Source: Anaerohalosphaera lusitana (GTDB lineage Bacteria > Planctomycetota > Phycisphaerae > Sedimentisphaerales > Anaerohalosphaeraceae). Taken from it: 64,000 bases of DNA. Location of the stretch: contig NZ_CP019791.1 of assembly GCF_002007645.1 (NCBI RefSeq), forward strand, positions 2,170,001-2,234,000. The letters are read 5' to 3'. Under the pieces are notes generated by a model, which was not told where the DNA came from, did no database searches, and saw only the letters and a list, made by a program, of their open reading frames with translations. The position numbers and the translations under genes were made by a program. Numbering within the stretch: the stretch's first letter is position 1; every line of letters starts with the position of its first letter. Shown here in pieces: positions 17,447 to 62,163 of this stretch.

Positions 17447-17520
17447 GGGGTCGTAGCTCAATTGGTTAGAGCATCGGACTGTCGATCCGAAGGCTGAGGG
17501 TTCGAGTCCCTTCGACCTCG
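17447..17520 (+). tRNA. tRNA-Asp (GTC)
   Basis: The cloverleaf is complete. Acceptor GGGGTCG pairs with CGACCTC (one G-U), the D stem is GCTC/GAGC, the anticodon stem is TCGGA/TCCGA with loop CTGTCGA (anticodon GTC), and the T arm contains GGTTCGAGTCC. The discriminator base is G73, an identity element of tRNA-Asp. CCA is not encoded. An integrase gene reads toward its 3' end, so this tRNA is the probable attachment site of the mobile region that follows. Confidence 0.97.
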
Positions 17521-17528
17521 TTTTCATA

Positions 17529-17597: not shown

Positions 17598-18803
17598 TCA
17601 CTTTTGCGTCAGTCCCGAAAAGCCTTTCTGAAGCATCTTATTCATCAGCTTGCTTGCCGAGGCCAGATTTTCAGGACAAACTGCCAAATAGTATTGTCGA
17701 GTTGTGGTTATATTAGAGTGCCCCGCAAATTGCTGTACGATTTGGATTGGCAGATGTTGTGCCCAGTTAGTTATTGCAGACCTTCTTAAGTCATGTATTG
17801 AGTACTCACAAATCTTCGCTTTCTTACAGAGTGTATTGAATTTTTTTGGAAGATTGTTGATTACTTCACACTTAGAGTTCCAAGTGCCTCTATCTATCCG
17901 CTGTTTGATATGTCTCAATCTTTCTGGCGAGAGGAAAACATAAGGTGCGCATCCCGTTGACTCGAAATGGATATCTGCGAACAGTTGGGCAGTTTTCTCT
18001 GGCATAGGAATTACACGACGTTCGTGATCTTTTGGTTCCCACTCGATAGTGTGTTCCATGTGCTTTTTTGGATTGACATAAATGTATTGGTTTTCGAAAT
18101 CTATGTCATTCCAAGTCAAATTCACCAGTTCGCCTCTTCTTAAGCCGCAACAGTAAGCGGCAGAGATGAACGTCTTCCACCACAAACTGTCAGTGGTGTG
18201 CAGTAATTTACGGTAGTCGTCCATGCTTACATAATTGATTGGTTTGGAAGAAATTCTTCTCTGCTTGATTTTTGCAAAAGGGTTGTCTCCTTCTTTGAGA
18301 TAACCTCTGCGTTCAATTGCGAGATTGAAGATGCTTTTAAGAGTTCGGATGTCTTTGTTTGCTGTTGCTGTACTGATGCCCGAGGCCAGTCTTTTAGCGA
18401 TAAAAGCTTCGGCATCGCGAGCACGTATCTCAGTTAATAGGGTGTTGCCGCCTATGAACTTTTTAAAGAGTTTGAGCTTATGCATTTGCTCAACTAATGT
18501 GGCATCAGCGACCTGTCCTTTAGTAAGGATTTTATGTTCCGCGACAAAATCTTCGAACGCTATCCTCTTTGGTCTGTCCTGCTTACCGCAGTTTACCTGC
18601 TCCTGGAGCTGACGGGCAAAATTGTCAGCCTGCTTTCTCGTCTTGAAGCTTTTTGAATACCTCTTGCGGTCAGTTCCGAACCATCGAACTACCCAGTTGT
18701 GGCGTCTATTTTTGGGCCAGTCGCTTTTGGGTATTTTCCTGCCGTTTTCTGTCGGAGCAGGTTCGAGCCATCTGCGATAAATGCCAATTTTTTCTGTTGC
18801 CAT
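17598..18803 (-). CDS. int: Tyrosine recombinase (phage/ICE-type integrase)
   Basis: The 401-aa protein has an N-terminal arm/core-binding region and a C-terminal catalytic domain. Catalytic residues are visible: Arg in CGLRRGELVNLTW, His-x-x-Arg in IHDLRRSAITNW, and His plus the nucleophilic Tyr in GHSNITTTRQYYL. ATG 18803 is chosen because AAAGGAG lies 7 nt upstream; codons upstream of it are out of place. It ends 77 nt from the 3' end of tRNA-Asp, the classic position of an integrase that recombines at a tRNA gene. It should catalyse integration and, with the small DNA-binding protein next door, excision. Confidence 0.93.
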   Translation of the reverse strand: MATEKIGIYRRWLEPAPTENGRKIPKSDWPKNRRHNWVVRWFGTDRKRYSKSFKTRKQADNFARQLQEQVNCGKQDRPKRIAFEDFVAEHKILTKGQVADATLVEQMHKLKLFKKFIGGNTLLTEIRARDAEAFIAKRLASGISTATANKDIRTLKSIFNLAIERRGYLKEGDNPFAKIKQRRISSKPINYVSMDDYRKLLHTTDSLWWKTFISAAYCCGLRRGELVNLTWNDIDFENQYIYVNPKKHMEHTIEWEPKDHERRVIPMPEKTAQLFADIHFESTGCAPYVFLSPERLRHIKQRIDRGTWNSKCEVINNLPKKFNTLCKKAKICEYSIHDLRRSAITNWAQHLPIQIVQQFAGHSNITTTRQYYLAVCPENLASASKLMNKMLQKGFSGLTQK

Positions 18804-18883
18804 TTGGTAACTCCTTTCTGCAGTTACCACTGGCGACTGACAGAGGGATTGTACCAGATTCGAGGCGTCAGCGCAAGTGCTGT

Positions 18884-38112: not shown

Positions 38113-38145
38113 TCAACTGAATATTTCAGAAAGGAAAGAATAAAA

Positions 38146-39027: not shown

Positions 39028-39029
39028 TC

Positions 39030-40732: not shown

Positions 40733-40748
40733 TTGAAAGGGATATAAG

Positions 40749-41039
40749 ATGATGGTTCTGGTGGCTTATGATGTCAATACTGAGACAAAGGCGGGACGGG
40801 GTCGTTTGAGGCACGTTGCGAAGCTCTGTGAAAATCGTGGTCAGCGTGTGCAGAATTCGGTGTTTGAATGCCTTGTTGATCCCGCTCAATGGGTCGAATT
40901 GCGTCAGGCTCTTGTCGGCGTAATTGCAGAGGATACCGATAGCCTGCGGTTCTATTTTCTTGGCAAGAATTGGAAAAGACGTGTCGAGCATGTCGGGGCC
41001 AAGCCTGGATATGATCCACAGGGGCCAATGATAGTCTGA
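40749..41039 (+). CDS. cas2: Cas2
   Basis: The 96-aa protein starts with the ferredoxin-like strand VLVAYDVNTETKAGRGRLRHVAKLC, which contains the conserved Asp after beta-1. It forms the central dimer of the Cas1-Cas2 integrase. It lies 16 nt after cas1 and directly before the leader. Confidence 0.97.
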   Translation: MMVLVAYDVNTETKAGRGRLRHVAKLCENRGQRVQNSVFECLVDPAQWVELRQALVGVIAEDTDSLRFYFLGKNWKRRVEHVGAKPGYDPQGPMIV

Positions 41040-41225
41040 ATGTGCCATCGCGAACCCCAGTTGCACACGGTTTTGCCGGGAGGTTCGCGATTGATGTAAA
41101 TGCTTTTTGGCAAGTGAATTATGGAAACGAAATATATCTCTGTTCCGGAAATCCCCTTCGACTGCGGAAGGTTCGCGATAAACCCTTGCTAACTTCTGCA
41201 ATGACAGTATTATATAACCCTTACC
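41040..41225 (+). promoter_or_regulatory. CRISPR leader
   Basis: This 186-bp stretch between cas2 and the first repeat has no gene. The 9-mer GGTTCGCGA occurs twice in direct orientation (41082-41090 and 41170-41178) and once inverted (41048-41056). The first pair is a perfect inverted repeat. These may be integration or promoter signals. An AT-rich stretch (TATTATATAACC) lies just before the first repeat. Confidence 0.7.
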
Positions 41226-42446: not shown

Positions 42447-42598
42447 ACTGAGGATTGCTCCTTCCTGCACGCTGGCTGAGCGTCGCTCCCTTATTCTTTT
42501 ACCATCGTCTTACTCCGACAAATTACTCAATACACTGAGTAATTTTACTTTATCTACAAAACAGTGTAAGGCTTTGCCCAACAACGGCTTGTAAATGC

Positions 42599-42743: not shown

Positions 42744-45700
42744 TTATTGAGCCCAGTCGTTTGCAAGCTGTGTAAAATCTAAGAGATCAATTTTCTGATC
42801 TCCATTTGGAAGTGGAGCTACATCGACAACAGGATTTGTGTTGTAGTTGAGCCAGGCTTCACCCAAAATAAGCAGGTCGGCGATGTCGATCCTGCAGTCT
42901 TTTGTGAAATCGGAATGATAGGGAGTCGTAGCGAGGTCTGCATTAGTTTTCTTTACATCAACAGCTCCTTCATTAACTTTTGCTTCATTCAATTCGACTG
43001 TCACGGGCGTGCAATTGAGCGGCCCCGAGGCAAACTGAATGTCAGCCATCTTGCCGTCATACTGCATCGGCTGAGCGCCTGCCAATGCAAGTTTAATCGT
43101 TCCCGGAACGGCCGTATTTGAAATAAAGCTGAAGTTGTTCAGCCCAACCATTTCGCCCTGAGTTACTATCGGTGTACCAAAAATTGAGTGGTCGTATTGA
43201 ACCGTGAGATCAACAGAATAGATTTCGGTGCCGTCCTCAAATGTAATATGTATAGGCAATGTGCAATTCTCATGAGGTAAATATGTTTTGTCTGTCAGAG
43301 ACACCGCTGTTGAAGGATCGGTATTACTGTTCAAATCACTCATGGTCTGCTGTGCCATAGAATCGCTCCAGTTGCCTGATACGTCACCAACAAGAATGCC
43401 CGTGAAATTCTGTCCTGGCTGATCTGTATTCAAAAGAGGGAACTCTCTTTCTTCCGGCACGAACGTCCAGATTTCTTCACTGCCGGGGAACGGAACCGAT
43501 ATCAAATCGACCGCTTTTTGTAGGATATATGATGCATCCATTGCTGAAACAAGCCCATTCCTGTTTACATCTGCAGCGATTTGCTGGTTCTGTGAAAGGG
43601 TCCGAAGTCCCGCGTCGGCCTGTAAGATGAGTGATGCATCGAAGGCTGTTATCTCTTGGGCATCGTTCGACTTAGCAGGTTTGAGGCGATAGCTGCCAAC
43701 GGGAATGTCTTGCATTGAGTAAGACCCGGTTCCTTCGCTAACAGTATCAATGGGATTGCCCACGCCCGAAAGGGTCAGAGCAGTGCTGGGTATTCCAGCC
43801 AGGTCGTTGAAATAGCTGACTGTGCCGCTGATCCCGAACAGGCCGTTGACGATGACGCTGCCGTTGTCGACCGCATGCGATATCGTCCCATCGTTAAGGA
43901 CCGAACTGTGAATAGTCAACGGCGAAGTTGCCGGAGGTGGTGCAATGATCTCAAATTTTATGACAGCTAAATCTCCAGTGTCGCTTACAGAAGCAGCGCC
44001 TGCTGTAGATATTCGGATTTCTCCAGCCGTAGCAGTGTTTGCTGTAAAGGACCAGTCAGGGATGAGTCCACCTTTGTTTACACTGCTGATGTTCAGTATG
44101 CTGCTATCATATTCAATGGTACAGCTCGCAGCCAGAAGCCCCTGGACATCGGCCAGTGTGAGTGGGACAGTAACAATGGTTCCATAATCACCCACAGCCT
44201 CAGGCAAGGAAATGACGATCTGTTCATCGTGGAATGTAAATGCATTAGTTAAACTGCATGAAGTCATATCAGGGTTGATCAGCTTCACATCCACGAGTGC
44301 AGGGTCGTGGGATGGGGTTTTACAGCGGATTTGTGACGAACTCAAGTATTCGACGTCAACAGCTTGCTCTGTGCCAAACATAACGGTCGCCCCTGTCTGG
44401 AACATGCTGCCGGAAAGCGTTACAAGTGTCCCCCCATCTGCTGAGCCGGTATTTGGACTGACTGAATTAAGTGAAGGGGCATTTTCTACATTTACTGTAT
44501 GCGGCAAAGCAGGCGTTCCGTTATAAACTGTGCTGATGCCGTCGGTTGCTGTGATGTAGTAATCAAGGCCGGGGGGCACTACTGCTGAGCCTGAAATACT
44601 CGCACTCCACATGCCTTCGCTTGTGTTAAGCATTGACAGTGACCGGAAAACTTCTTCACCTATTGCTCTATAATACAGTGTTACGGATTCCACTGTGACA
44701 TTGTCACTTGCAGATGCCGTGATGCGGAGATTGGTGCCCCCAACAGCCTCAAAAACAGGGGTATGCGTAATTTCGGGAACTATAGTATCCAGGGGCGCAG
44801 CTGATGCAACATTCGAATAGTTCGACTCGGTGTAATCTGTTTTTAACACGGTAAATTTGTAGTAGAGCGGCACTGCTGGAACAACGTCTGTATCAGTGAA
44901 GTATTCACGGCCGACCGGAATGATAGTGTCATTGATTTTTTCGTACGTTCCGTCTAAAGTAGTACTCCGATATATGTTGTAACCGGCCAGCATGTCAAAA
45001 TCATCCTGCTGCCAACTTAGTTCGATTCTCCCTTCACGGCCTGTTGCATGCAGCGTCATGGCTAGTATGCCCATTGTTTTAACTTCGAACCGGAATCTAC
45101 CAACATCATGACCAGTGACTAGCCATGGGTCATCTGCGGCAACAGCTCCGGATATGCGTATGCAATGGTAACCGTCTCCGGTCACTGGGACTACCCAGAA
45201 AGAGCCCTCCCAGGTGCGCGCATCGATCCAGCCGGCATTGTCGTTATCTATTGGCTTGACAACGAAATCTGTGTACGGCGAGGTTGGACCGAATGTCACA
45301 AATGGAATATTGTTTGGATCGGTGTTCATGTCTCTGTTGAAAGTGACGCGGAAAGTAGTTGGACCCATGCCAACCTCTGGAATAGATAGGGCGGATTGGC
45401 CGTTAATATACAGGCCATCGACAAAAGGATAAGTGGACTCATATCCACGGGCAGGGGGCTGGCCGTAAACAACTTTTGCCTTGGTGAAATCATCGTAATA
45501 ATCATAGATCAGATAATCGATGAGTGTCGATGAATCTGTTCCCCAGAAATTGTCTTTCATGGTTACAATGTTCTCATTATTCCCTGGTGCTTGTATATGC
45601 ATCCAGTTATTCAGACTTGGATCCCAATACTTGTTCAAAAATGCATTAAATCTAAAATGCCCTGTGTCGGCTTGAGTCACGTAATCCAATGCCTCCTGAG

Positions 45701-48629
45701 ATCGCAATTTAGTAGTCAATTCGTTGGCAGTCCATTCTCCCGGCAGCTTGAGAACAAAGTTATCGCCGATACGGTACCATCCGCTGAACCCTGAAAAGCT
45801 CTTCCAGTCAAATCTTGTACCAAGGTTCATGTCGTAGTATGCGTCTCCAAAATACATATGCGGAAATGCTCCGCCTGGAGTTCCGCCAAAGCCATTGTAA
45901 GTGTATACCAATTCATTACCGTCCAGCCACACCCATTCTCTTGGAAACCCCCTCGTCGTGAGGCCAAAATGAGTTCGCATGTAACGGTTGTTTGCAAGCT
46001 TGGTTTCCATCAACTGCTGCTCATCCTCTGACAAAATTGAAGCTATGTGTCCGCCCATGAATTGTGCAAATCGTTCAACCATATCAAACTCAACACCCGA
46101 TGCGTGTAAACGGGCATACGTCAAATCAGAAGCGGCATCATAGTACGCATAATCAAAAGAATAAGCTGAGGAAAGCACTTCAGGGATCGTTGTAGCCCGG
46201 GGTGTGAAAGTTACAGGCTTGTTATTCTCTATATCCATTAAAAATACATTGTCCACAAATTCGAGAGAGTTCGAATGAGGCCATGTCCATCCGCTATTGA
46301 AAAGGCAACTCTTGTAATATCCGATATTTAGTGTGCCCTGCGGCCTTAGCCGGTGGAAAATACAGTATCCCGCTTCTCTTGCATGGATTACCGGTGTTCC
46401 ATAGTCCTGCTCAAAATAGCAGTGATCAAGTGTTCCCATCCCGCTATGAATTTCCGGGTTGCGGACGGTGGTGTATTTCATGTTAGCGGTTCCCCCGTTA
46501 AATGTTATCTTTGTTGTCTGTCCTGCAACAAGATAGCTTGGAAACATGTTTACGGGTTTGTCTTGAGTGCCCTGAACCTCAAGCTTGCCTTCCACAACGA
46601 AGTAGCCATTCTGCGGACCAGGATTATAAGGATCATCGCTGACTGATCCAAATTGAATCTGACTTCCTTCCGCAATCGTTAGCGTAACTCCCTCTTCGAT
46701 CAGTACTGGTCCGCCGACAATCCAGAATTCATCTGAAGTTAAAGTCATATCCTGTTCAATTACTCGCGGTACGTTTTTGCCTCTCGTCACCACGTAATTC
46801 CAACGGCTTATTCTAGTGAAGCTTTCAGGGTTGTCTGGATCCCAGCCATCGTTAAAGGTTATAGTAAGTTCAAATGGAATCACATGTTCGTTCGGACAGT
46901 TCGGAGCCACTCTAAACACAAGCGGGTCATCGACACCTATGATCACTCCGTCCTGGTCATAAATGAGCCCGTTGTCGTACATACTCCATGGCCCCATTGC
47001 GGATATGCTGGACGTTCCGTCGATTATCTCGACATATGGGTCATCTATCATCGAACCCTGGGCGCGGGCACGTAAGGTCAAATCTATGTTCTCAGCCGCA
47101 CCACTTCGGTTGATCAGCTCGATGCCCATATGAATCGTTTCTCCGGCATCAACCGAACCGTCAGCGTCATTTTCATCGGATATCGCTGGGTCGTCAAAGA
47201 TCCAGTTGTCATACATAGTTACACCTGGGGTCGGCGGAGTCGTAACGGCAACATAAGCGTCACAAACTGTACCACTGCTTACGATGCTTGCCATCAAAAA
47301 CCGATTGGAATAAATGTCCCGCTGCCAGAAGAATGATCGAAGCAAAGCTGCTGTACCTGAAACCACAGGAGCCGCCATGGATGTTCCGCTCCATTCTGCA
47401 TAGCTGTTGTTCGGAAGCGTGCTTAGGATGGATTCGCCAGGAGCCATTATATCTCCTGGGTTTGAAAACCAGCTTTTTTCGCCGTCAGTATTACATGAAG
47501 CAACACCAATCACATAGGGATATTTGGCTGGGTAACAGGGAATTGGTGCGCTGTCGTTTCCGCTGGAGGCTACCAGAACCGCCTGACTCAGTGCGACTTC
47601 TAATGCATCGGTAATTATCTGGCTGTATTGATAACCGCCGAAACTCATGTTTATAACTTCCGCACCATTTTCAGTTGCATATATGATGCCCTCGGAGATG
47701 TCCTGAATAGTTAAAGTTCCCGTGTACTGAGCAGCACGAATTGCCATGATCTTGGTGTTGAATGCTGTCCCGATTATACCTTTGCCATTGAACGCCTGCG
47801 CAGAAATGATCCCTGATACGTGCGTTCCGTGCCCGTGCATATCCATGGGGTCACCGGAATGGCTGCGCGGGTCAGAAACCACGTTGCAGCCGTGAATGTC
47901 ATCGATAAAACCATTGTTGTCGTCATCGATCCCGTTGCCGGGAATCTCAGCGCTATTGACCCACATGCTAGCCTGCAGCTCTTCATGTGTGTAGTCAACA
48001 CCGGAATCGATTACTGCAACGGTCACGTCACTGTTTCCCCCGGCACAAATGCCGTTTGTGTTGATGTAGTTCCAGGTGGCCTGTATTTCTGCTTGAGTCA
48101 AATACCACTGCTCGGGGTACATTGGGTCTGTGGTTCCATCAGGTAGGTTCTCTATGGGTGGATCAAATCCCCAAGCCATCTTCCACTCATAATTCGGTTC
48201 TACGTATTCAATTGATTCATCTTTGGTGAGCTGTTCGATGAGCTGCTGTATGTCCACATTCTCGTCCGTGGAATAGTGATACCAGCGGCGTAGATTCTTC
48301 TTTTTCTGCTCAAGCCCGTTTCGCGAATTCAGTTTTGATATCTGCTGGCTTCCTTGCTTAAAGGCATGCTCAAATACTCCCCGGCCTTTTTGTAAGCCGC
48401 GGCCCTTGAGCTTTTCTTTTACTCTTGGACGGAGCGTTCGTGCTGATCTTTCAGTTTTGCCGGCTGACTTGACTTCAACCAGGGCAGATTCCTTGAATTT
48501 GATCAGAATCTCTCGCGGTTGGTAAGAGTCTTTGTACTGGGCTGAACCGCGTTCGGTGAGCTTGCCGGCTTTAGTTTGAGCGCAGATGGCGAACAAAACC
48601 AGCGACGCAATTAAGAATTGCTTAAACAT
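42744..48629 (-). CDS. Giant secreted subtilisin-like (S8) protease with dockerin-like tail
   Basis: The 1961-aa protein has a signal peptide (first about 21 residues), a prodomain (35-150) and an S8 catalytic domain with Asp208 (VIDSGVDYTH), His267 (HGHGTHVSG), Asn358 and Ser417 (SGTSMAAP). Then follow beta-helix-like and C-type-lectin-like regions (about 660-950), Ig/fibronectin-like repeats, an IPT/TIG domain (SVSPNTGSADGGTLVTLSGS), two cohesin-like beta modules and two dockerin-like Ca2+ repeats (DVNRNGLVSAMDASYILQ; DCRIDIADLLILGEAW). The last repeat ends in LLDFTQLANDW, a planctomycete-style C-terminus. It is probably exported to digest host or environmental protein. Its presence between CRISPR and the Ubl module is unexplained. 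Confidence 0.9.
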   Translation of the reverse strand: MFKQFLIASLVLFAICAQTKAGKLTERGSAQYKDSYQPREILIKFKESALVEVKSAGKTERSARTLRPRVKEKLKGRGLQKGRGVFEHAFKQGSQQISKLNSRNGLEQKKKNLRRWYHYSTDENVDIQQLIEQLTKDESIEYVEPNYEWKMAWGFDPPIENLPDGTTDPMYPEQWYLTQAEIQATWNYINTNGICAGGNSDVTVAVIDSGVDYTHEELQASMWVNSAEIPGNGIDDDNNGFIDDIHGCNVVSDPRSHSGDPMDMHGHGTHVSGIISAQAFNGKGIIGTAFNTKIMAIRAAQYTGTLTIQDISEGIIYATENGAEVINMSFGGYQYSQIITDALEVALSQAVLVASSGNDSAPIPCYPAKYPYVIGVASCNTDGEKSWFSNPGDIMAPGESILSTLPNNSYAEWSGTSMAAPVVSGTAALLRSFFWQRDIYSNRFLMASIVSSGTVCDAYVAVTTPPTPGVTMYDNWIFDDPAISDENDADGSVDAGETIHMGIELINRSGAAENIDLTLRARAQGSMIDDPYVEIIDGTSSISAMGPWSMYDNGLIYDQDGVIIGVDDPLVFRVAPNCPNEHVIPFELTITFNDGWDPDNPESFTRISRWNYVVTRGKNVPRVIEQDMTLTSDEFWIVGGPVLIEEGVTLTIAEGSQIQFGSVSDDPYNPGPQNGYFVVEGKLEVQGTQDKPVNMFPSYLVAGQTTKITFNGGTANMKYTTVRNPEIHSGMGTLDHCYFEQDYGTPVIHAREAGYCIFHRLRPQGTLNIGYYKSCLFNSGWTWPHSNSLEFVDNVFLMDIENNKPVTFTPRATTIPEVLSSAYSFDYAYYDAASDLTYARLHASGVEFDMVERFAQFMGGHIASILSEDEQQLMETKLANNRYMRTHFGLTTRGFPREWVWLDGNELVYTYNGFGGTPGGAFPHMYFGDAYYDMNLGTRFDWKSFSGFSGWYRIGDNFVLKLPGEWTANELTTKLRSQEALDYVTQADTGHFRFNAFLNKYWDPSLNNWMHIQAPGNNENIVTMKDNFWGTDSSTLIDYLIYDYYDDFTKAKVVYGQPPARGYESTYPFVDGLYINGQSALSIPEVGMGPTTFRVTFNRDMNTDPNNIPFVTFGPTSPYTDFVVKPIDNDNAGWIDARTWEGSFWVVPVTGDGYHCIRISGAVAADDPWLVTGHDVGRFRFEVKTMGILAMTLHATGREGRIELSWQQDDFDMLAGYNIYRSTTLDGTYEKINDTIIPVGREYFTDTDVVPAVPLYYKFTVLKTDYTESNYSNVASAAPLDTIVPEITHTPVFEAVGGTNLRITASASDNVTVESVTLYYRAIGEEVFRSLSMLNTSEGMWSASISGSAVVPPGLDYYITATDGISTVYNGTPALPHTVNVENAPSLNSVSPNTGSADGGTLVTLSGSMFQTGATVMFGTEQAVDVEYLSSSQIRCKTPSHDPALVDVKLINPDMTSCSLTNAFTFHDEQIVISLPEAVGDYGTIVTVPLTLADVQGLLAASCTIEYDSSILNISSVNKGGLIPDWSFTANTATAGEIRISTAGAASVSDTGDLAVIKFEIIAPPPATSPLTIHSSVLNDGTISHAVDNGSVIVNGLFGISGTVSYFNDLAGIPSTALTLSGVGNPIDTVSEGTGSYSMQDIPVGSYRLKPAKSNDAQEITAFDASLILQADAGLRTLSQNQQIAADVNRNGLVSAMDASYILQKAVDLISVPFPGSEEIWTFVPEEREFPLLNTDQPGQNFTGILVGDVSGNWSDSMAQQTMSDLNSNTDPSTAVSLTDKTYLPHENCTLPIHITFEDGTEIYSVDLTVQYDHSIFGTPIVTQGEMVGLNNFSFISNTAVPGTIKLALAGAQPMQYDGKMADIQFASGPLNCTPVTVELNEAKVNEGAVDVKKTNADLATTPYHSDFTKDCRIDIADLLILGEAWLNYNTNPVVDVAPLPNGDQKIDLLDFTQLANDWAQ

Positions 48630-49538: not shown

Positions 49539-49808
49539 TCAGGCTTTTGAGGGGTCGATTTTTTCGATGTTGTTTTGTTTTGGATTACCGCTGATTATCC
49601 AGTCACCGTAATAGCATCCTGCGTAGTAGATCATATCTTCGATGATACGCAGCATGTCACAGTTTCCGTTTTCATCGATGAGTTTTATATAGCTGGTGTA
49701 AGTGACGTGGATGTTTTGGTAGGGTCCCAGCACGGGCCCGTCAAGACCCCAGTCATCCATTTGCTGTGCGGGATCTTTTCTGCCGTGAAACATTTTAATA
49801 AAGACCAT
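49539..49808 (-). CDS. Hypothetical protein, last gene of the Ubl cassette
   Basis: The 89-aa protein has a ribosome-like GAGG just before ATG 49808 and no recognised fold. It is rich in Tyr, Asp and Ile. It follows the E1-like gene after a strong intercistronic hairpin (49837-49876) and is closed by a terminator. It could be a substrate or adaptor of the tagging system, but nothing in the sequence proves this. Confidence 0.5.
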   Translation of the reverse strand: MVFIKMFHGRKDPAQQMDDWGLDGPVLGPYQNIHVTYTSYIKLIDENGNCDMLRIIEDMIYYAGCYYGDWIISGNPKQNNIEKIDPSKA

Positions 49809-49883: not shown

Positions 49884-50534
49884 TTACTCGGTTACACTGA
49901 TTTCCGCGGCAAGCAGATTCAACTGGATATCAGCTTCTGCGGGCATCTGCCGCAGGAATTTTGTAAATTGTGCAAGCATAAACCCGGCCGCTATGTTGGC
50001 ACAGTAGATGGTAGTCTTTGCGGTGCAGGCGCCCGCATACGCCCTCTGAGGCGTAAAAAGGGTCCGGGGGTAATGCAGGCGTGATGATTCGTCGGCAGCT
50101 GTTATTACCCTGAGACTCTCAGCGGTCATCCTGCCGTCGACAAAGAACGTGGATCTGTCTTTGACCGCCTGCCATATCAGCCTTCGTGTATGGATAGAGT
50201 CTACCGCACAAAACACACAGTTGCCGATCTCTCCGCTGCGTTTGAACCTTTGTTCGACCGATACTACCTCTAACTTGCTATTGATCTGCCTGCACAGTCC
50301 TGCGGTGGCCCTTACTTTGGGCTTGCCCAGATCGGCTTCAAAATATCCCTGGCTGGCAATGTTAGTTACTTCGATTAGGTCGTGATCGATCAATTGAAGC
50401 CACGGGATGCCCATAGCTGCAAGCTGTAAAGCTACCTGCCTGCCTATGGCTCCAACACCGATAACCGTTGCTCTGCAGGACGCAATCCGTTCTGCCGGAA
50501 CAATGTCCTGTTGTCTAGAATATCTCGGGTTCAT
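49884..50534 (-). CDS. E1-like (ThiF/MoeB-family) ubiquitin-activating enzyme
   Basis: The 216-aa protein starts at MNPRYSRQ, with the RYSRQ motif of E1/ThiF proteins. The adenylation domain has GVGAIGRQVALQLA (nucleotide binding, 26-39), acidic LIDHDLIEVTNIASQGYF (49-66) with the catalytic Asn/Arg region GKPKVRATAGL, and Cys-Thr-Ala-Lys (170-173) and Cys178 in the later part. E1 enzymes adenylate the Ubl C-terminus and often form a thioester. It lacks the large ubiquitin-fold domain of eukaryotic E1. Its ATG overlaps the JAMM gene's stop (ATGA), so they are translationally coupled. Confidence 0.85.
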   Translation of the reverse strand: MNPRYSRQQDIVPAERIASCRATVIGVGAIGRQVALQLAAMGIPWLQLIDHDLIEVTNIASQGYFEADLGKPKVRATAGLCRQINSKLEVVSVEQRFKRSGEIGNCVFCAVDSIHTRRLIWQAVKDRSTFFVDGRMTAESLRVITAADESSRLHYPRTLFTPQRAYAGACTAKTTIYCANIAAGFMLAQFTKFLRQMPAEADIQLNLLAAEISVTE

Positions 50535-51316
50535 ATGAACACCTCGCTTTCGTCGTCCCATAGATCAGGTCTTTGTGCCAGCTCATCCATAACCGAGCGG
50601 CGTGTTGCCGGATCGAGCGCCTCTAGCTGGTCGATCATATCATTTGAAACCACCAGATCATCCCAGAACTCATCATGTTCGGAGCCGGCAAGGTTCAGCG
50701 CATCGGCAGATGTTGACGCCCAGGGGATCTCGATGACGTTTTGTTCGTATTCAGCGTCCCAGCTGTCATGATCGGTTGGACCGAACTGACAGCCGTAGTC
50801 AACACGAACGGGAATGAGCATGTCAGCGCCTGGCCCCACATTAAAACGCAGCTTTGCAAAAGTGTTGTCGTCCTCTGCCAGTATGAACATGACCGCCCAC
50901 TGACAGGATCCAAAGACCCTTGCAAACGTCTCGTTGTCGGTGGCACTCGGTGTGGGTGAGTCGGATGGATGTGTATGCAGCCAGACGCGGGCGAACTGCT
51001 CGGGTCTTTTGCCAGCATCGACCTGCCTGTCAAAATAGTCCGCCACGGCTTCGTCATGGAAGCTGACAGTTACCGATGTTACCTGCTGAGTGATGGTGAC
51101 AAACTCTCTTACGTACAGCAGGTCATCGGTATCGGTGACCGCAAAGCCCGCCACCTCATTATCGCTTTTGTCGCGAAAATACAAAAGCTTTGCCCATGCG
51201 GTGGGGCTGAATCGAAGAATGGGGTTGAAATTTTTACTGCGTTTTTTCTTTTGATTTGATTTAACTGTTTTCGATTGTGATCTGGTCCTGGCTGTCGTTT
51301 TGTTTTTCTTGGCCAT
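50531..51316 (-). CDS. JAMM/MPN (JAB) metalloprotease, predicted deubiquitinase-like
   Basis: The 261-aa protein starts at ATG 51316 (AGGAG 8 nt upstream). After a basic tail the JAB domain shows Glu54 (DNEVAGFAV) and HTHP-x6-SxxD at 114-127 (HTHPSDSPTPSATD), the full zinc-ligand set of JAMM proteases. Such enzymes remove ubiquitin-like tags or process Ubl tails. The C-terminal 90 residues are acidic and unassigned. The start is embedded in the last 56 nt of the E2-RING gene. Confidence 0.88.
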   Translation of the reverse strand: MAKKNKTTARTRSQSKTVKSNQKKKRSKNFNPILRFSPTAWAKLLYFRDKSDNEVAGFAVTDTDDLLYVREFVTITQQVTSVTVSFHDEAVADYFDRQVDAGKRPEQFARVWLHTHPSDSPTPSATDNETFARVFGSCQWAVMFILAEDDNTFAKLRFNVGPGADMLIPVRVDYGCQFGPTDHDSWDAEYEQNVIEIPWASTSADALNLAGSEHDEFWDDLVVSNDMIDQLEALDPATRRSVMDELAQRPDLWDDESEVFI

Positions 51317-52280
51317 TTTCATTGCTCCTTTCTGCCAGGCAGTCCCGGCAAATATCTTCTCCAATACACTTGACGCAAAAGTTGTCGCCGCATTCCGAGC
51401 AGGTTCGTGTGCAGTCGGGGCATATGGTATCTCCACAGTCGATACATTCGTCCTGACACGATATACAGGCGGTGATCTGACGGCAGCACTGACAAAACAT
51501 TACGCAGCCCTGGCAAAAGTCGTAGCCGCAGAACTCGCAGTATAAGGTGTGATCGGGATCTGTGATAAAGCCGCATTCGTAGCAGGATATACCCTCCCAG
51601 TCCTCTATCGGTATGTACGGACTCTCAGGGTTGTAGACCTTGAGAATGCTTTCGACCATGCTGAAAAAATCAGCAAACCTTCCCTGCTCAAGTGCCTTTC
51701 GGATGGGGACGGTTCCATCGCCTTCGCAGACCAGCTCATTGCTGATATGCGGATGGGTTACGGCCGATTCCGAGGCGGCAGGATGCGGATCCAGGGCGGT
51801 GACATAGTATTTGCTGCGGTTGTCACTGCTCGTGAGCCCTTCGATGTACAGCGATATCTCAAAGGGCCCCAGATAAACCCCTTCAAGCGTGATCGGTGCG
51901 GTGGTCACAGAGAGAGTGTCCCTTGGCGGATCAAATCTAAAGCCGCCGCAGTCGGCTTCGATCTGATCGAGCTCTTCGATGAGCTGTCTGATAGTCGGTG
52001 TTTTTGTCCTGGGCGGTGCAAGCGTCTCTTTGTTTGCACTTATCCAGTAGTTAATCTCCAGGCAGAGCCTGTCGATTCTGCTAAGACATTTTTTTGCGGC
52101 CCCGTGCCAGCCCCTTACGGCGGCCAGCTCGAGCTTGTGCGAGTTTTTCATGATGTGTGCCGCCATATCCGCAAACCTCTGGGTCCTGTGCGATGTCTCG
52201 ATGAGCCTGTTGCAGCGGCCGGTGATAAGGGCCTGCTGGAGCCTGGCTGCGATTTTGAGTTTTTCTTTTGTTGGGTTCAT
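51261..52280 (-). CDS. E2-like domain fused to RING/treble-clef zinc fingers
   Basis: The 339-aa protein starts at ATG 52280 (AAGGA at 7 nt). Residues about 100-225 look like a ubiquitin-conjugating (E2) fold: strands ending YYVTALDPHP, then THPHIS, and Cys185 (NELVC), followed by helices ADFFSMVESILKVYNPESPY. In eukaryotic E2 enzymes HPNxxxxGxxC has the same order, with His at about -10 from the catalytic Cys; here H176 to C185. Residues 230-315 contain ten Cys pairs (CYEC, CEFC, CQGC, CPDC, CSEC, CVKC, CRDC) as in RING-like and treble-clef fingers. It would combine conjugating (E2) and target-choice (E3-like) roles. The homology is by motif and has not been searched. Confidence 0.75.
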   Translation of the reverse strand: MNPTKEKLKIAARLQQALITGRCNRLIETSHRTQRFADMAAHIMKNSHKLELAAVRGWHGAAKKCLSRIDRLCLEINYWISANKETLAPPRTKTPTIRQLIEELDQIEADCGGFRFDPPRDTLSVTTAPITLEGVYLGPFEISLYIEGLTSSDNRSKYYVTALDPHPAASESAVTHPHISNELVCEGDGTVPIRKALEQGRFADFFSMVESILKVYNPESPYIPIEDWEGISCYECGFITDPDHTLYCEFCGYDFCQGCVMFCQCCRQITACISCQDECIDCGDTICPDCTRTCSECGDNFCVKCIGEDICRDCLAERSNENGQEKQNDSQDQITIENS

Positions 52281-52303
52281 AGGTCTGTCCTTTCGAAAAA
52301 GAA

Positions 52304-52333
52304 GGGCACCTGCCCGCTGGTGAGCAGATGCCC
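52304..52333 (-). promoter_or_regulatory. Terminator-like hairpin between Ubl and E2-RING genes
   Basis: On the minus strand GGGCATCTGC pairs with GCAGGTGCCC around a 10-nt loop, followed by TTCTTTTTC and then the E2-RING ribosome site. It may lower transcription of the downstream genes relative to the Ubl. Confidence 0.65.
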
Positions 52334-52351
52334 CTGGTGAAGTTGACATTG

Positions 52352-52579
52352 TTACTTTGGTCGCGCGCCCTGGACCTTTGTCGGTGTAATCGTAATCCTG
52401 TCGTTTGGCTGGAGGATATAATCACGCGGTACCGGCTGACGGTTGACCCGGATCAGATAATCTTCGGGGCTGTCGGCCGGCATCTTCTTGTTGAAAAACT
52501 GCTCGACAGTCGTGTTTTCGCTGATGTCGATATAGTCGGCAAAGCCGCCTCCTGAGTTGTTTACATAGAGAATACGCAT
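52352..52579 (-). CDS. Ubiquitin-like (ThiS/MoaD-type beta-grasp) protein
   Basis: The 75-aa protein has the compact beta-grasp outline: an N-terminal strand (MRILYVNNSGGG), a helix (TTVEQFFNKK), and VNRQPVPRDYILQPNDRITITPTKV, which matches the RVNGE.VPRDT.L.DGD.V...P pattern of ThiS/MoaD. The C-terminus is VQGARPK, not GG. Conjugation would need trimming after Gly71, perhaps by the JAMM protease. Ribosome site AAGGG lies 7 nt upstream. The next genes are the E2-RING, JAMM and E1. Confidence 0.78.
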   Translation of the reverse strand: MRILYVNNSGGGFADYIDISENTTVEQFFNKKMPADSPEDYLIRVNRQPVPRDYILQPNDRITITPTKVQGARPK

Positions 52580-52729: not shown

Positions 52730-53590
52730 TTATCCGTTTTGGGATGATTTGAACATCTCAGGCGCGATCTGATCGAGCGTTGTGGGCCTAAAGTACAGAT
52801 CCCGCTCGACCGGCAGTCCCAGAGGACCGCGAAGTTCTTCGAGCTCTTGGAGGCTTATATAGCCCAGCTCCTTGCAGTGACCCTCTACCAGGCCGAACAT
52901 CTGGTAGTCGATGACGTTGCCTGCCCTGTCCTTTACCGGCTCGGCTTCGAGTATCCACCAGGTAAAAGATGAGTCGGGTGTAAAGAGCTTGCAGTGTGCC
53001 AGGGCCTTGCCGCCTTTGCCGTCCTGGCTGCCTAAAGGAGGCAGTTTTTCACGAAGATCCTCTGTCAAAAGCTCCATGCCCCGGATCCTGTTGTTGGCCT
53101 GTGCCCTGGTCGATGTCTTCTCGGTTGCTGTGAGTATCTCGGCTGTGCTGCTGACAAACTCCGTGAGGTTTTGGTTCTGCTCCTTGCGATCGATCGGATC
53201 GGATTCACAGGCAGGTATAGGTCTTGTCAGAAGCTCGACCTGGTCGGGATTGAGTTCTATGACCACCCGGCCGTTGTCCTGGGAATACCACTCAAAGTAC
53301 GGGTACTCGACATAGTCGGCCGGCTGCAGCCCTGCGGTCATGTCTCCCGCCTTGCCTTTCTGGGTCATAGAAAAGCCCTGCATTCTGCTCGTTGCTTTGC
53401 CGCGATCGCATGCTTCTCCGTCACCGCGAAGCAGTACCTTTGAGCCCCTGATATCCCTGTGGAAATTGCCGTCCAAATCAAAGGTTACTTTTTCCTCGAT
53501 ACCGGCAAACTTCATCCAGCCGGTGATCTTGCCCTGTCGTGTGTTGTCCAGTACGCCTTCAATAAATTGTTCATTTGGTCTCCATGCCAT
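52730..53590 (-). CDS. DUF2958-domain protein with unassigned N-terminal domain
   Basis: The C-terminal 115 residues match the plasmid/ICE family DUF2958 (GMELLTEDLREKLPPLGSQ, CKLFTPDSSFTWWILEAEP, FGLVEGHCKELGYISLQELEEL, GLPVERDLYFRP). The N-terminal 170 residues are beta-rich and unrecognised. Start ATG 53590 after AAGG. It leads the Ubl operon, 150 nt upstream of the Ubl gene. The role of DUF2958 is unknown; it is a marker of conjugative or mobilisable plasmids. Confidence 0.8.
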   Translation of the reverse strand: MAWRPNEQFIEGVLDNTRQGKITGWMKFAGIEEKVTFDLDGNFHRDIRGSKVLLRGDGEACDRGKATSRMQGFSMTQKGKAGDMTAGLQPADYVEYPYFEWYSQDNGRVVIELNPDQVELLTRPIPACESDPIDRKEQNQNLTEFVSSTAEILTATEKTSTRAQANNRIRGMELLTEDLREKLPPLGSQDGKGGKALAHCKLFTPDSSFTWWILEAEPVKDRAGNVIDYQMFGLVEGHCKELGYISLQELEELRGPLGLPVERDLYFRPTTLDQIAPEMFKSSQNG

Positions 53591-53669
53591 TTGTATCACC
53601 TTACCTTTCTTTTTGCGTTTTAGTTTTTCGTTTTCGTTTCAGTTCTGCTTTGCTTCTTGCTAAATAACA

Positions 53670-57440: not shown

Positions 57441-59525
57441 ATGCGGCTAAAGCCGATACTGGGTAAAAAGATAGACTCGCTCTGGAAGGCCTACCTGCTC
57501 TCGGAGGGCAGGGACGAGAAGGCGGATATACTGCAGACTCTTGAAATCCTCGCCGAAAAACACCTCGGCTCATCGATCGACAACTCATCGGATCCTTTCC
57601 CGCCGCCTGATAAGGGTTCGGTTGCCGCCGGTGATATAGAGCTTGGGACAATCCGGTATGCCGGCCGCGATATATCACCTTTGAAACTCAAATCAGACAG
57701 ACTCAAAGAGCACCTTCTTGTCGCCGGCAGAAGCGGGTCGGGAAAGACCAACCTGACGTTCGTTCTTGTCGACAGTGTCATTCGAAGCGGTATAAAGGTA
57801 CTCGCACTTGACTGGAAGAGGGGATATCGCGATCTAAAGCAGGTGCATCCGGATTTAAAGGTCTATACGGTCGGGCGTGATATTTCTCCTTTCAGGTTCA
57901 ATCCGCTGATACCGCCGCCGGGCTGTGAGCCCAATATATGGATCAAGCTTATCGTGGATGTGATCGCGGATGCATACCTGGGCGGTGAGGGAGTGATAAG
58001 TCTTCTTGTCAGCGGACTTGAGCATCTTTACAATGAGTTCGGAGTCTATGAAGGGATCGGTCCTAGGTGGCCCACGATAAAGGATCTGCTCGGCTGGCTC
58101 AAAAATGCAAAACTCAAGGGAAGGGCAGCTCAGTGGCAGGCGTCCGCTCAGCGTATCCTGATGGCGATGACCTATGGTGAGTTCGGCAGGGTAGTCGAGA
58201 CCCAGGACAACAGCGATATTTTAAAACTGCTCGATGAAAACTGTGTGCTGGAGATGGACGGGCTCTCTGCCAATACCGATAAGGTGATGTTCTCAGAGGC
58301 CCTGGCGCTCTATGTTTATCGCCACAGACTCGCCCAGGGTCCAAGGGATAAGCTGACCAATCTCCTGGTCATAGAGGAGGCACACAACCTCCTGCACGCC
58401 AAACAGGCAGGATCCAGAGAGTCGGTCCTGGAAAACTCAATCAGGATGGTGCGCCAATACGGACTTGGATATGTGTTCGTCGATCAGTCGGCGTCGCTTT
58501 TGAGCAAGGTGGCGTTTGCAAACTCTTATGCAACGATTGCACTGAGCCAGAAACTGAGATCAGACATCACCTCACTGACCAGCGCAATGAATCTCGACGA
58601 CGATCAAAAATCTGCCCTTTCCCAGCTTGAAAGGGGCGAAGCGATAGTAAAGATCGCAGACTGCTCACCCAGGCCGTTCAGGGTCAAGCTGCCTCTTTTC
58701 GAAATAACGGAAGGTGAGATTACCGATGCGATGCTCAGATCCGACCGCGACGGCGATTCCGCCCGGTCCGGTCAAACCGGGGGCAATTCTGCCGGGTCCG
58801 GGGCTGTTTCGGACGGTCCGGAAAAGGAAAAGGAAGTTGATAAAATATTGAAGATACTCGACGAGATAACAGCTTCCCACCCACCCGCGGACCAGGAAAA
58901 AGATAAACAGTCGCATTCAACGGAACAATCCCACCCACCCTCCATGATAATGACAAGAGAGATGATAAGGTTTCTGGACGATATAGTGCAAAGGCCGTTG
59001 AGCTCGACTGTAAAACGATATAATCGCCTGAGGTTTTCAAGGCGCAGGGGAAACGCCATCAAAAAAGAGCTTACAGCAGCCGGGATCATAGACGCCGTCT
59101 CCGTTCCCACCCGCACCGGTCAGGTGGTCCTTTTACAGATATCCGACAACGCCCGGGGCCTGTGCATCCGGGAGGGGATATTCCCGCCTCGCAGGCGAGA
59201 GAGCATCGAACATCTTTTCTGGAAGGAAAAAGCAAAAGAGTATTTTGCCGACCTTGGCTATGACGTCTCGCTCGAACACTCGGTCACAGACAACGGAGTC
59301 GTCGACCTTGTCGCCAAAAATCACCGCGAAAAAATAGCAGTCGAGGTCGAGACCGGCAAATCCGACATAGCCGCCAACATCAAAAAGCTCAGTGATACTG
59401 ATTTTGATAGACTGGTGCTCGTAGCGACGAATGCGTCGGCGGTCGATAAGATTGACAGGGCGATTGCCGGCTGTGATAACCCGCGGGTGCCGATTGAACG
59501 TCTTTGCTGGCTCGATATTTCATGA
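57441..59525 (+). CDS. HerA-like ATPase fused to a PD-(D/E)xK nuclease-like domain
   Basis: The 694-aa protein has Walker A (GRSGSGKTNLTFV, 96-108), a large ATPase core up to about 420 with Walker B (LLVIEEAHNLL near 305-315), a Ser/Gly/Glu linker, a winged-helix and a C-terminal fold (about 585-690) with RESIEHLFWKEKAKEYFADLGYDV, NGVVDLVAKN and VEVETGKSD. The Asp and E-V-E-T-G-K fit a PD-(D/E)xK-type nuclease site. The paralogue at 29701 lacks these residues. DNA-pumping ATPase plus nuclease is typical of conjugative or defence machines. It overlaps the convergent gene at 59389 by 137 nt. Confidence 0.82.
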   Translation: MRLKPILGKKIDSLWKAYLLSEGRDEKADILQTLEILAEKHLGSSIDNSSDPFPPPDKGSVAAGDIELGTIRYAGRDISPLKLKSDRLKEHLLVAGRSGSGKTNLTFVLVDSVIRSGIKVLALDWKRGYRDLKQVHPDLKVYTVGRDISPFRFNPLIPPPGCEPNIWIKLIVDVIADAYLGGEGVISLLVSGLEHLYNEFGVYEGIGPRWPTIKDLLGWLKNAKLKGRAAQWQASAQRILMAMTYGEFGRVVETQDNSDILKLLDENCVLEMDGLSANTDKVMFSEALALYVYRHRLAQGPRDKLTNLLVIEEAHNLLHAKQAGSRESVLENSIRMVRQYGLGYVFVDQSASLLSKVAFANSYATIALSQKLRSDITSLTSAMNLDDDQKSALSQLERGEAIVKIADCSPRPFRVKLPLFEITEGEITDAMLRSDRDGDSARSGQTGGNSAGSGAVSDGPEKEKEVDKILKILDEITASHPPADQEKDKQSHSTEQSHPPSMIMTREMIRFLDDIVQRPLSSTVKRYNRLRFSRRRGNAIKKELTAAGIIDAVSVPTRTGQVVLLQISDNARGLCIREGIFPPRRRESIEHLFWKEKAKEYFADLGYDVSLEHSVTDNGVVDLVAKNHREKIAVEVETGKSDIAANIKKLSDTDFDRLVLVATNASAVDKIDRAIAGCDNPRVPIERLCWLDIS

Positions 59526-61053: not shown

Positions 61054-62163
61054 ATGGATTTAACCGAGTATGTGCAAAGACAAAAACACGTCGTCGCTCA
61101 ACAGAGCAGGGCGGTCAGGGACTTTACGGTCTTTGACTACAACTACATCCCGGAAAAACCGTTTATCAGAAGCGAATCAAAGCAGATCATCGATGCTATG
61201 CTGCGGTTTGACGTTTCCGGCATTGCGACTAATTTTGCGGTCATAGGCTCTAGAGGTTCCGGAAAGACGCTTACCATGAAATACCTGGCCAGGGTCGTTC
61301 CGGCCCAGACCGATCTTAGCATGCGGTATGTCAACTGCCGGCATCACAATACCAGCTTCAAGATACTCGCAAGGCTGCTCAACAAGAGGTGTACTGGCCT
61401 AAGTCTCGACAAGCTCTTTGAGATGTTCAGTGAATCGATCACCGGCAAAACGGTCTTCGTGCTGGATGAGGTCGATCTTATGAGCGCAAAGGACAAAAAC
61501 CGCGACATCCTCTACCTGCTCAGCAGAAGCGAAAAGCCTGTTATGGTGATAATGCTCTCAAACAATCCGCATCTTTTAAGGGAGCTCGATGCGGCTTCTA
61601 AAAGCTCGCTTCAACTGGTGCAGATGCATTTTGCCAATTACAACGCTGAGCAGATAAACGCTATCCTGCTGGAGAGGGCACAGAAGGGTCTTGTCAGTTA
61701 CGACTATACAGAAGTCTCTGAAATCGCGGCAATGACCACCAAAAAGACCAACTCCGATACTCGGGTTGCGATAAAGACGCTTTACTATAACGTCACCGAA
61801 CCGCAAAAGTCGGTCGAGTCGTGCTTTGAGAATGCCCGCAAGGACATCGTCATCGATGTAATAAACGATCTGTCCGATCAGAACCTGTTAATCCTCACTG
61901 CCGCCGCACAGAATAAATCCGATCTCACCAAGAACATTTATGACCTGTACTGCAGGTTGTGCCGCAGTCAGTGTGAAAAGCCCTTCAGCTATGTTTACTA
62001 TTATTCCAATCTTGGCTACCTGCAGTCGATTGGGCTGATTGCGCTGGTCTCGACGAAATTCGGCAGGACGTATACCAATCGCGTGGTCCTAACCTTCAAC
62101 CACAGCATCCTCTTCGACACCTGTCGGCTGAGGTTTTCAAGAGTACCCGCACCCCGGAGTTAA
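61054..62163 (+). CDS. Orc1/Cdc6-like AAA+ replication initiator
   Basis: The 369-aa protein has the archaeal Cdc6/Orc1 layout. P-loop GSRGSGKT (65-72), Walker B VFVLDEVD (134-141), sensor 1 (LSNN, 168-171), a sensor-2-like SDTRVAIKTL (234-243) and a C-terminal winged helix (270-365). In archaea it binds origin boxes and loads the helicase. Bacterial elements rarely carry such a protein. The gene is bracketed by boxes A and B, and its stop codon lies within box B'. Box positions suggest autoregulation or origin function. Alternative: a DnaC/other initiator-associated AAA+; the motif order favours Cdc6. Confidence 0.8.
   Translation: MDLTEYVQRQKHVVAQQSRAVRDFTVFDYNYIPEKPFIRSESKQIIDAMLRFDVSGIATNFAVIGSRGSGKTLTMKYLARVVPAQTDLSMRYVNCRHHNTSFKILARLLNKRCTGLSLDKLFEMFSESITGKTVFVLDEVDLMSAKDKNRDILYLLSRSEKPVMVIMLSNNPHLLRELDAASKSSLQLVQMHFANYNAEQINAILLERAQKGLVSYDYTEVSEIAAMTTKKTNSDTRVAIKTLYYNVTEPQKSVESCFENARKDIVIDVINDLSDQNLLILTAAAQNKSDLTKNIYDLYCRLCRSQCEKPFSYVYYYSNLGYLQSIGLIALVSTKFGRTYTNRVVLTFNHSILFDTCRLRFSRVPAPRS

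What the first reader, a model, noticed from the sequence alone, without database searches (positions are those of the whole stretch)
49884..52579. Compact ubiquitin-like conjugation cassette: Ubl, E2-RING fusion, JAMM protease, E1
Four adjacent, overlapping or tightly spaced minus-strand genes encode the four functions of a ubiquitin-type cycle: a beta-grasp Ubl (52352), a conjugating-type domain joined to RING-like zinc fingers (51261), a JAMM protease (50531) and an E1 (49884). The E1 and JAMM genes are coupled by ATGA, and JAMM starts inside the E2-RING gene. Bacterial systems of this type are known from computational surveys and some act against phages, but an E2-RING fusion in a mobile element with archaeal-type replication genes is unusual. 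Whether it acts in defence, host take-over or element biology is unknown.
Basis: partly seen in the sequence, partly recalled or inferred. Interest (0 to 1): 0.92.

Follow-up and report, generated by a model that had tools for sequence, protein, structure and literature searches.

The report
Mobile ubiquitin-like tagging cassette in bacteria
Four neighbouring genes on a mobile island of a planctomycete bacterium encode what looks like a complete ubiquitin-type protein-tagging system (tag, activating enzyme, conjugating enzyme fused to zinc fingers, and tag-removing protease), and the same four-gene block turns up in dozens of related bacteria and in tailed phages, often beside DNA-replication genes, so it may show how phages and mobile elements use ubiquitin-like tagging.

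Summary
Four intact, co-directional minus-strand genes encode a beta-grasp Ubl, an E2-like protein with a C-terminal Cys-rich zinc array, a JAMM protease and a minimal E1. The order Ubl-E2/Zn-JAMM-E1 is kept in 21 loci from genome searches and 67 from contig scans, mostly Planctomycetota, with up to six copies per genome, and on phage contigs bearing terminase genes. Catalytic residues are invariant or nearly so. AlphaFold models are confident: the Ubl's best PDB match is Caldiarchaeum ubiquitin, the E2 part's best matches are UBC enzymes, and the JAMM profile's best are Rpn11-type deubiquitinases. The zinc array is RING/FYVE/B-box-like (all-Cys), not a canonical RING; ligase activity is unproven. 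The Ubl ends in GA, not GG. The window copy lies in a 112-kb tRNA-Asp island with 50-bp direct repeats. On phages the block sits among replication and recombination genes; the host has no proteasome. I read it as a complete reversible Ubl-conjugation cascade carried by mobile elements, perhaps acting on DNA-replication/recombination proteins, with phage defence the main rival. It is a new variant of a known kind: planctomycete ubiquitin-type operons were reported in 2011.

The parts
52352..52579 (-). Ubl, 75 aa, beta-grasp, ends ..TPTKVQGARPK; family tail ..TPxKIxG-A plus variable extension
   Evidence: ORF; AF2 pLDDT 91.1; best Foldseek PDB hit Caldiarchaeum ubiquitin 6fj7 E=8.5e-4; tail statistics
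51261..52280 (-). E2-like/zinc-array fusion, 339 aa from ATG at 52280: N-terminal helical hairpin (res 1-90), UBC-like domain (res 95-228; H176-P-H178 and catalytic C185), CxxC array (res 233-314; ten pairs)
   Evidence: AF2 pLDDT 92.6; Foldseek top hits E2 enzymes; invariant residues
50531..51316 (-). JAMM protease, about 261 aa; E, HxH, S, D active-site residues
   Evidence: Prok-JAB 4.2e-6; profile hits Caldiarchaeum and eukaryotic Rpn11; invariants; start inferred from AAGGAG-N8-ATG
49884..50534 (-). Minimal E1 (ThiF/MoeB-type adenylation domain, 216 aa) with invariant C170
   Evidence: ThiF 3.7e-24; A7 invariants; PDB profile hits UBA7, ThiF, MoeB, UBA5
52730..53599 (-). DUF2958 gene upstream of the Ubl; family found at 22 of 92 loci
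   Evidence: Pfam 3.9e-12; neighbourhood clustering
49539..49808 (-). Small conserved protein downstream of E1 (8 loci)
57441..59525 (+). HerA-like DNA translocase ATPase, linked at 8 loci
   Evidence: DUF87/HerA 4.6e-10
61054..62163 (+). Cdc6/Orc1-like AAA protein, linked at 4 loci
   Evidence: AAA_22 3.2e-8, Cdc6_C 0.002
17476..17525 (+). att direct repeat (3' end of tRNA-Asp), left end of the island; further copies at genome 2299362-2299411 and 2331326-2331375
17598..18830 (-). Tyrosine integrase next to tRNA-Asp
   Evidence: Phage_integrase 5.7e-22

Best explanation
A complete, self-contained and reversible Ubl-conjugation cascade carried by mobile elements. Proposed cycle: (1) JAMM trims the pro-Ubl at or just before the conserved Ala after the invariant Gly; (2) the minimal E1 adenylates the Ubl C-terminus and probably forms a thioester on C170; (3) the Ubl passes to C185 of the UBC-like domain; (4) the fused treble-clef zinc array acts in cis as E3-like substrate- or E2~Ubl-positioning module; (5) JAMM removes the Ubl. 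Shown here: the genes, folds (predicted), conserved active sites, fixed gene order and mobile or phage location. Inferred: every catalytic step. Likely role (about 0.4 on its own): control of DNA-replication/recombination proteins of the carrying element, or of its host or rivals, by Ubl modification rather than proteasomal degradation.
For: Gene order kept in 21 and 67 loci. E2 H176, P177, C185 and JAMM HxH, S, D invariant, E1 N58, K73, D112, C170 invariant even in crAss- and Flavobacterium-phage homologues. Ubl and UBC folds. JAMM profile closest to Rpn11 deubiquitinases. Pro-Ubl tails vary from 0 to about 30 aa after a fixed G-A (78 of 84 have A), and L135/L136 encode a three-domain poly-Ubl, its last unit ending exactly ..LKVQGA in L135; both suggest a processing protease. 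Replication linkage: phage G331 has PolA, the cassette, then exonuclease VIII and DUF669, with terminase and portal on the same contig; L135/L136 have an SbcC/Rad50-type ATPase and a metallophosphatase beside it; L050 has TOPRIM/AAA and SNF2 proteins; crAss phage cr128_1 has primase, UDG and resolvase; the window island has HerA and Cdc6. No proteasome or HslV in the host.
Against: No biochemistry. The UBC region has no detectable sequence similarity to any solved E2 and the Foldseek E-value is only 0.023. The E1 lacks the Arg of the usual N-x-x-R-Q motif (S/T/P/G instead). The C-terminal GA is atypical. Linkage to replication genes could reflect mobile-element gene content in general; Pirellulales loci instead carry an AAA+ ATPase and other genes of unknown role.
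Confidence: 0.75

Rival explanations
1. Anti-phage or anti-plasmid defence: the element carries the cascade to tag proteins of incoming phages, as Bil systems do, and phage copies are counter-defence or inter-phage weapons.
For: Carried by islands, serine/tyrosine recombinase elements and Tn7-like (TniB/TniQ) elements, up to six copies per genome. Type I-C CRISPR-Cas genes lie within about 10 kb in the window, Cas genes lie near four other loci, and one flanking gene matches Gabija GajA. Known relatives Bil and type II CBASS are antiviral.
Against: PADLOC hits to the E1 and JAMM are weak and partial, and it has none for the E2/zinc protein or Ubl. No toxin or effector is fixed in the neighbourhood. 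Complete phage-borne versions sit inside the phages' own replication modules, and most viral E1s branch outside the bacterial clade (long branches).
Confidence: 0.35
2. The zinc array is not an E3 at all: it is a DNA- or protein-binding scaffold that tethers an E2 to its site of action, and transfer is E3-independent.
For: Ten all-Cys CxxC pairs in tandem; best profile matches are B-box, FYVE and TFIIH p44 domains rather than catalytic RINGs; array length varies (longer in phage L049, shorter in L111 and L079); no Pfam RING hit in 20 members.
Against: Fusion to the E2 recurs throughout the family; p44-type C4C4 spacing (CX2C-X11-CX2C-X4-CX2C) looks shared, and B-box and RING domains are cross-brace relatives (general knowledge).
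Confidence: 0.4
3. A sulfur-carrier system of ThiS/MoaD-ThiF type used in a biosynthetic pathway or tRNA thiolation.
For: ThiS is the only Pfam family near the Ubl (6e-4); the E1 is ThiF/MoeB-sized; JAMM proteins also occur in sulfur operons (PMC1779556).
Against: An E2-like protein with conserved catalytic Cys and zinc array accompanies it in all complete loci; no rhodanese, sulfurtransferase or cofactor gene was seen among the conserved neighbours that were identified; the tail is GA rather than GG.
Confidence: 0.05

Closest known systems
Caldiarchaeum subterraneum Ub/E1/E2/small-RING/Rpn11 operon (PMC5654768)
   Same: Five functions in one cluster; pro-Ubl with C-terminal extension removed by JAMM; the Ubl model's best PDB hit and the JAMM profile's best hits are the Caldiarchaeum proteins.
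   Different: Here E2 and zinc domain are one protein, the E1 is a 216-aa adenylation domain only, the tail is GA not GG, and the E2 has no sequence-level match to solved UBC enzymes.
Bacterial RING-containing ubiquitin-like operons in Actinobacteria, Planctomycetes and Acidobacteria (Burroughs et al. 2011, cited in PMC4197634; full text not held)
   Same: Planctomycete operons related to the Caldiarchaeum cluster.
   Different: Could not be compared gene by gene. Pfam, NCBIfam and PADLOC do not recognise this E2/zinc family; whether the 2011 survey included it is unknown.
BilABCD (as summarised in PMC11354881)
   Same: Ubl, E2, JAMM and E1 in a four-gene operon; Ubl matured by JAMM.
   Different: BilD has an inactive plus an active adenylation domain and a Cys domain; only a weak partial BilD hit in PADLOC; no zinc array described for BilB.
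Bub operons and type II CBASS Cap2/Cap3 (PMC13373217, PMC10097602)
   Same: E1, E2 and peptidase functions; Bub operons have Ubls.
   Different: The solved BubCD chain (458 aa) matches the E1 profile over one segment only, and Cap2-type proteins fuse E2 and E1; here the E1 stands alone.
PRTRC cassettes / Iyer 2006 operon type 6d (PMC1779556)
   Same: Ubl, E2, JAB and E1 together; PRTRC is typical of plasmids and integrative elements (general knowledge).
   Different: PRTRC_ThiF score 26.9 bits against a cut-off of 144.75; type 6d E2s lack the conserved His, which is present here; no zinc array described there. That PRTRC and 6d are the same is my assumption.
crAss-like phage cr128_1 and Flavobacterium phage FpV4 blocks (L144, L145)
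   Same: Homologous minimal E1 (profile E=4e-28 and 7e-27) directly after a JAMM gene, in a replication-gene region.
   Different: Their putative E2 and Ubl genes do not match this family's profiles and have no zinc array.

Membership tests
E2/UBC superfamily | UBC fold | tested here: met
   Model pLDDT 92.6; best Foldseek PDB hits 3we5 (E 0.023, prob 0.96) and 2z5d (0.070, 0.89), both E2 enzymes. Moderate strength.
E2/UBC superfamily | HPN-like motif about 10 residues before a catalytic Cys | tested here: met
   H176-P177-(H178) and C185 invariant or nearly so in 39 sequences; Asn is replaced by His.
E2/UBC superfamily | Detectable by Pfam E2 models or by profile search of solved E2s | tested here: not met
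   No E2 Pfam hit in 20 members; UBC-region profile finds no E2 in PDB.
RING finger E3 | Canonical C3HC4 or C3H2C3 ligand pattern | tested here: not met
   All ligands Cys, CX2C-X11-CX2C-X4-CX2C-X3-CX2C in the window protein; best profile hits B-box, FYVE, p44.
RING finger E3 | Promotes Ubl discharge from E2 | not testable with these tools
   Needs biochemistry.
JAMM deubiquitinase | E, HxH, S, D metalloprotease motif and DUB-type relationship | tested here: met
   H112, H114, S122, D125 invariant, E52 at least 90%; profile hits Caldiarchaeum Rpn11 1.4e-6, then eukaryotic Rpn11 and AMSH.
Ubiquitin-like modifier | beta-grasp fold | tested here: met
   AF2 pLDDT 91; 6fj7 E=8.5e-4; VIA Z 8-9.6 to MoaD, ThiS, SAMP1, ubiquitin.
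Ubiquitin-like modifier | C-terminal Gly-Gly | tested here: not met
   Invariant G followed by A in 78 of 84, G in 3.
E1 (ThiF/MoeB/UBA superfamily) | Adenylation signature and conserved Cys | tested here: met
   G26, G28, D50, D52, N58, K73, D112, C170 invariant.
E1 (ThiF/MoeB/UBA superfamily) | Arg of the N-x-x-R-Q motif | tested here: not met
   S/T/C/P/N/G-type residues at that position, no Arg in the 37 aligned sequences; the motif's role is from general knowledge.
BilABCD | BilD two-lobed E1 with Cys domain; PADLOC Bil models | tested here: not met
   E1 is 216 aa; only a weak partial BilD hit, 3e-6.
Type II CBASS (Cap2/Cap3) | E2-E1 fusion protein | tested here: not met
   E2 and E1 are separate genes in the complete loci.
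PRTRC | PRTRC_ThiF above curated cut-off | tested here: not met
   26.9 bits against 144.75; 26 bits in the genome search.
Integrative element at tRNA | Integrase at tRNA 3' end and direct-repeat att sites | tested here: met
   50-bp repeats at 2187.5, 2299.4 and 2331.3 kb, only the first part of a whole tRNA; excision not tested.

The most novel reading that the evidence does not exclude
Tailed phages and integrative elements carry their own full Ubl-E1-E2/zinc-JAMM cascade as a built-in part of their DNA replication and recombination machinery, a prokaryotic parallel to ubiquitin/SUMO control of eukaryotic replication and recombination proteins, and bacteria acquired theirs from such elements.
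Probability: 0.3. Interest if true: 0.92.

Novelty: new variant of a known kind. Interest (0 to 1): 0.7.

Why it matters
Only a few bacterial ubiquitin-like cascades have been studied, and most are read as defence. This family fuses the conjugating enzyme to its putative E3, uses a minimal E1 and a GA-tailed modifier, has an E2 missed by current Pfam, NCBIfam and PADLOC models, and occurs on phages beside replication genes; the window's host has no proteasome. It makes two questions testable: what non-degradative Ubl tagging does in prokaryotes, and whether phages use it themselves. A compact four-protein set is also a convenient minimal model of the ubiquitin cycle.

Tried and rejected
Single-protein scan of genome contigs with the E2/zinc protein found no relative: its short patterns were too specific; an alignment-based Ubl scan worked. 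No plasmid hit for the E2/zinc protein and no annotated-phage hit for two phage E2 relatives. An apparent conserved C-terminal tail VQPxxxGE of the E2/zinc proteins was considered a motif and rejected: I read it as the other frame of the overlapping JAMM start LRFSPTAWAKL. The VIA search with the E2 model was swamped by long-helix matches, so absence of UBC rows there says nothing. Plasmid E1 hits examined (L142, L143) are YcaO/TfuA-type and other ThiF operons without E2 or JAMM annotation. Portal PF04860 and capsid PF05065 gave no hit on viral contigs; PHROGs then found a portal on one. The BFVD fold search gave only weak, mostly zinc- or helix-driven matches. Burroughs 2011, Gong 2025 and Ye 2026 full texts are not held. 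Rfam found nothing in the region.
Full report
What is in the window. On the minus strand lie a Ubl (52352-52579), an E2-like/zinc protein (51261 to 52280, or 52349 if the longer start is used), a JAMM protease (50531-51316) and a minimal E1 (49884-50534). The JAMM stop and E1 start share ATGA; JAMM starts inside the E2 gene with AAGGAG eight bases before its ATG. Pfam recognises ThiF and Prok-JAB, nearly recognises ThiS, and sees nothing in the E2/zinc protein, nor anything significant in 19 relatives.

Family and gene order. Searching whole genomes found the E2/zinc protein in 9 of 294 genomes of the phylum sample and 7 of 39 of the window's own family (each count includes the window genome), with six copies in one 8.3-Mb genome. 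In the 21 of 22 loci not cut by a contig end the four genes stand in the order Ubl, E2/Zn, JAMM, E1. A contig scan with the Ubl alignment gave 128 relatives, 80 kept, nearly all labelled Planctomycetota; a few carry other phylum labels in MAGs, which may be binning errors. Together with viral contigs, 67 loci hold all four genes.

Residues. E1: G26, G28, D50, D52, N58, K73, D112 and C170 are invariant in 37 sequences including two annotated phages, but the Arg of N-x-x-R-Q is replaced. E2: H176, P177, C185 invariant, H178 nearly so. JAMM: HxH, S, D invariant. Ubl: an invariant Gly is followed by Ala in 78 of 84 sequences, then by 0 to about 30 variable residues; 11 end directly after that residue. 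Two viral contigs encode a three-domain poly-Ubl, the last unit in L135 ending ..LKVQGA. So the modifier is probably made as a precursor and cut at the G-A site; which side of the Ala is cut is unknown.

Structure. The E2/zinc model (39 sequences, pLDDT 92.6) has a long helical hairpin, a UBC-like alpha/beta domain and a zinc region of short hairpins. The best two Foldseek PDB matches are UBC enzymes, E 0.023 and 0.070. The UBC region alone has no sequence match in the PDB. The zinc region has ten CxxC pairs; its profile matches Midline-1 B-box (1e-4), FYVE and TFIIH p44 domains. I therefore call it a RING-like treble-clef array, not a RING. The Ubl model (pLDDT 91) matches Caldiarchaeum ubiquitin best (E 8.5e-4). 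The JAMM profile matches Caldiarchaeum Rpn11 (1.4e-6), eukaryotic Rpn11 and AMSH.

Carrier. The cassette lies in an island at tRNA-Asp. A 50-bp core covering the tRNA 3' end (17476-17525) recurs at genome 2299362 and 2331326; the later copies are not whole tRNAs, and a second 410-aa integrase-like ORF sits beside the middle one, so two elements seem to lie in tandem. The first is 111.9 kb; its right part looks like chromosomal cargo (secreted and carbohydrate-type proteins by appearance only), so whether it moves as one unit is open. HerA-like and Cdc6-like genes are linked to the cassette here and in relatives. Pirellulales loci have another conserved setting: an AAA+ ATPase (32 loci; PF00004 8.5e-27), a 320-aa protein of unknown kind (29 loci), other small genes, serine or tyrosine recombinases, and in four loci Tn7-like TniB/TniQ.

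Phages. Viral contigs of 179.5, 59.9 and 52.8 kb carry the complete block plus a terminase. The 59.9-kb contig also has a portal, and the block lies between DNA polymerase A and exonuclease VIII/DUF669. In L135 and L136 the block follows an SbcC/Rad50-type ATPase and a second E2-JAMM-E1 set, with a metallophosphatase upstream (no terminase hit in these two). L050, a terminase-bearing contig, has a zinc-less E2-JAMM-E1 set, with a Ubl-like ORF upstream, before TOPRIM/AAA and SNF2 genes; its E2 aligns with the family profile through the HPH..C motif. crAss-like phage cr128_1 and Flavobacterium phage FpV4 have a homologous E1 after a JAMM gene, beside primase, UDG and resolvase genes in the first and UDG in the second. 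In an E1 tree, all bacterial sequences plus one viral one form a supported group and the other viral ones fall outside it, though long branches make this tentative.

Mechanism. The simplest reading is a full cycle: maturation by JAMM, activation by E1, transfer to E2, positioning by the fused zinc array, removal by JAMM. The host has no proteasome or HslV hit (the same search rings in 10 of 14 control genomes), so tagging is probably not a proteasomal degradation signal there. The repeated placement among replication and recombination genes points to proteins of that machinery as targets; this is inference. Defence is the main rival because the block is mobile cargo, sits near CRISPR-Cas genes in five loci, and the studied relatives are antiviral.

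Known or new. Bacterial Ubl-E1-E2-JAB operons were predicted in 2006 (PMC1779556), and planctomycete operons related to the Caldiarchaeum cluster are credited to Burroughs et al. 2011 (PMC4197634), which I could not read. Bil, Bub and CBASS systems differ in architecture (PMC11354881, PMC13373217). I file it as a new variant of a known kind; the phage and replication-module setting is the part for which I found no report in the library searched.

Noticed in passing
window 33480-42465: Type I-C CRISPR-Cas locus (Cas3, Csd1/Cas8c, Cas7, Cas4, Cas1) with a 19-repeat array at 41226-42465, inside the same tRNA-Asp island; Cas genes also lie near the cassette in L022, L048, L077 and L103.
   Followed up: partly
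genome G000:C1 2187476-2331375 (window from 17476): Two apparently tandem integrative elements at tRNA-Asp (112 kb and 32 kb) share a 50-bp att core and each has an integrase next to its left att.
   Followed up: partly
L144 2662-6714 and L145 610-4621: crAss-like phage cr128_1 and Flavobacterium phage FpV4 have blocks of a beta-grasp-looking protein, an H..C-containing protein, a JAMM and a minimal E1, annotated as hypothetical or thiamine biosynthesis; likely divergent phage Ubl systems.
   Followed up: partly
L135 3020-6220 and L136 3288-6230: A second E2-JAMM-E1 set (no zinc array) lies just upstream of the Rad50-like gene and the poly-Ubl cassette on the same viral contig.
   Followed up: partly
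L049 10225-10890 (-): An HNH-looking gene on the opposite strand sits between JAMM and E1 in the 179.5-kb phage contig, possibly a homing endonuclease insertion.
   Followed up: no
L050 5523-6425; L049 9061-9984: Phage JAMM proteins carry a WW-like segment C-terminal to the protease domain (WW E=2.6e-4 in L050; by eye in L049).
   Followed up: no
L090, L107, L118, L128 flanks: TniB/TniQ-type (Tn7-like) transposition genes beside the cassette.
   Followed up: partly
L018-L029, L089-L125 (c11 family, about 231 aa): A protein with TOPRIM-looking motifs (EGxxD, PFGGG, DRE) precedes the AAA+ ATPase in many Pirellulales loci.
   Followed up: no
window 42744-48629: A 1,961-aa secreted protein, subtilisin-like and with dockerin-like repeats by eye, lies between the CRISPR locus and the cassette.
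   Followed up: no
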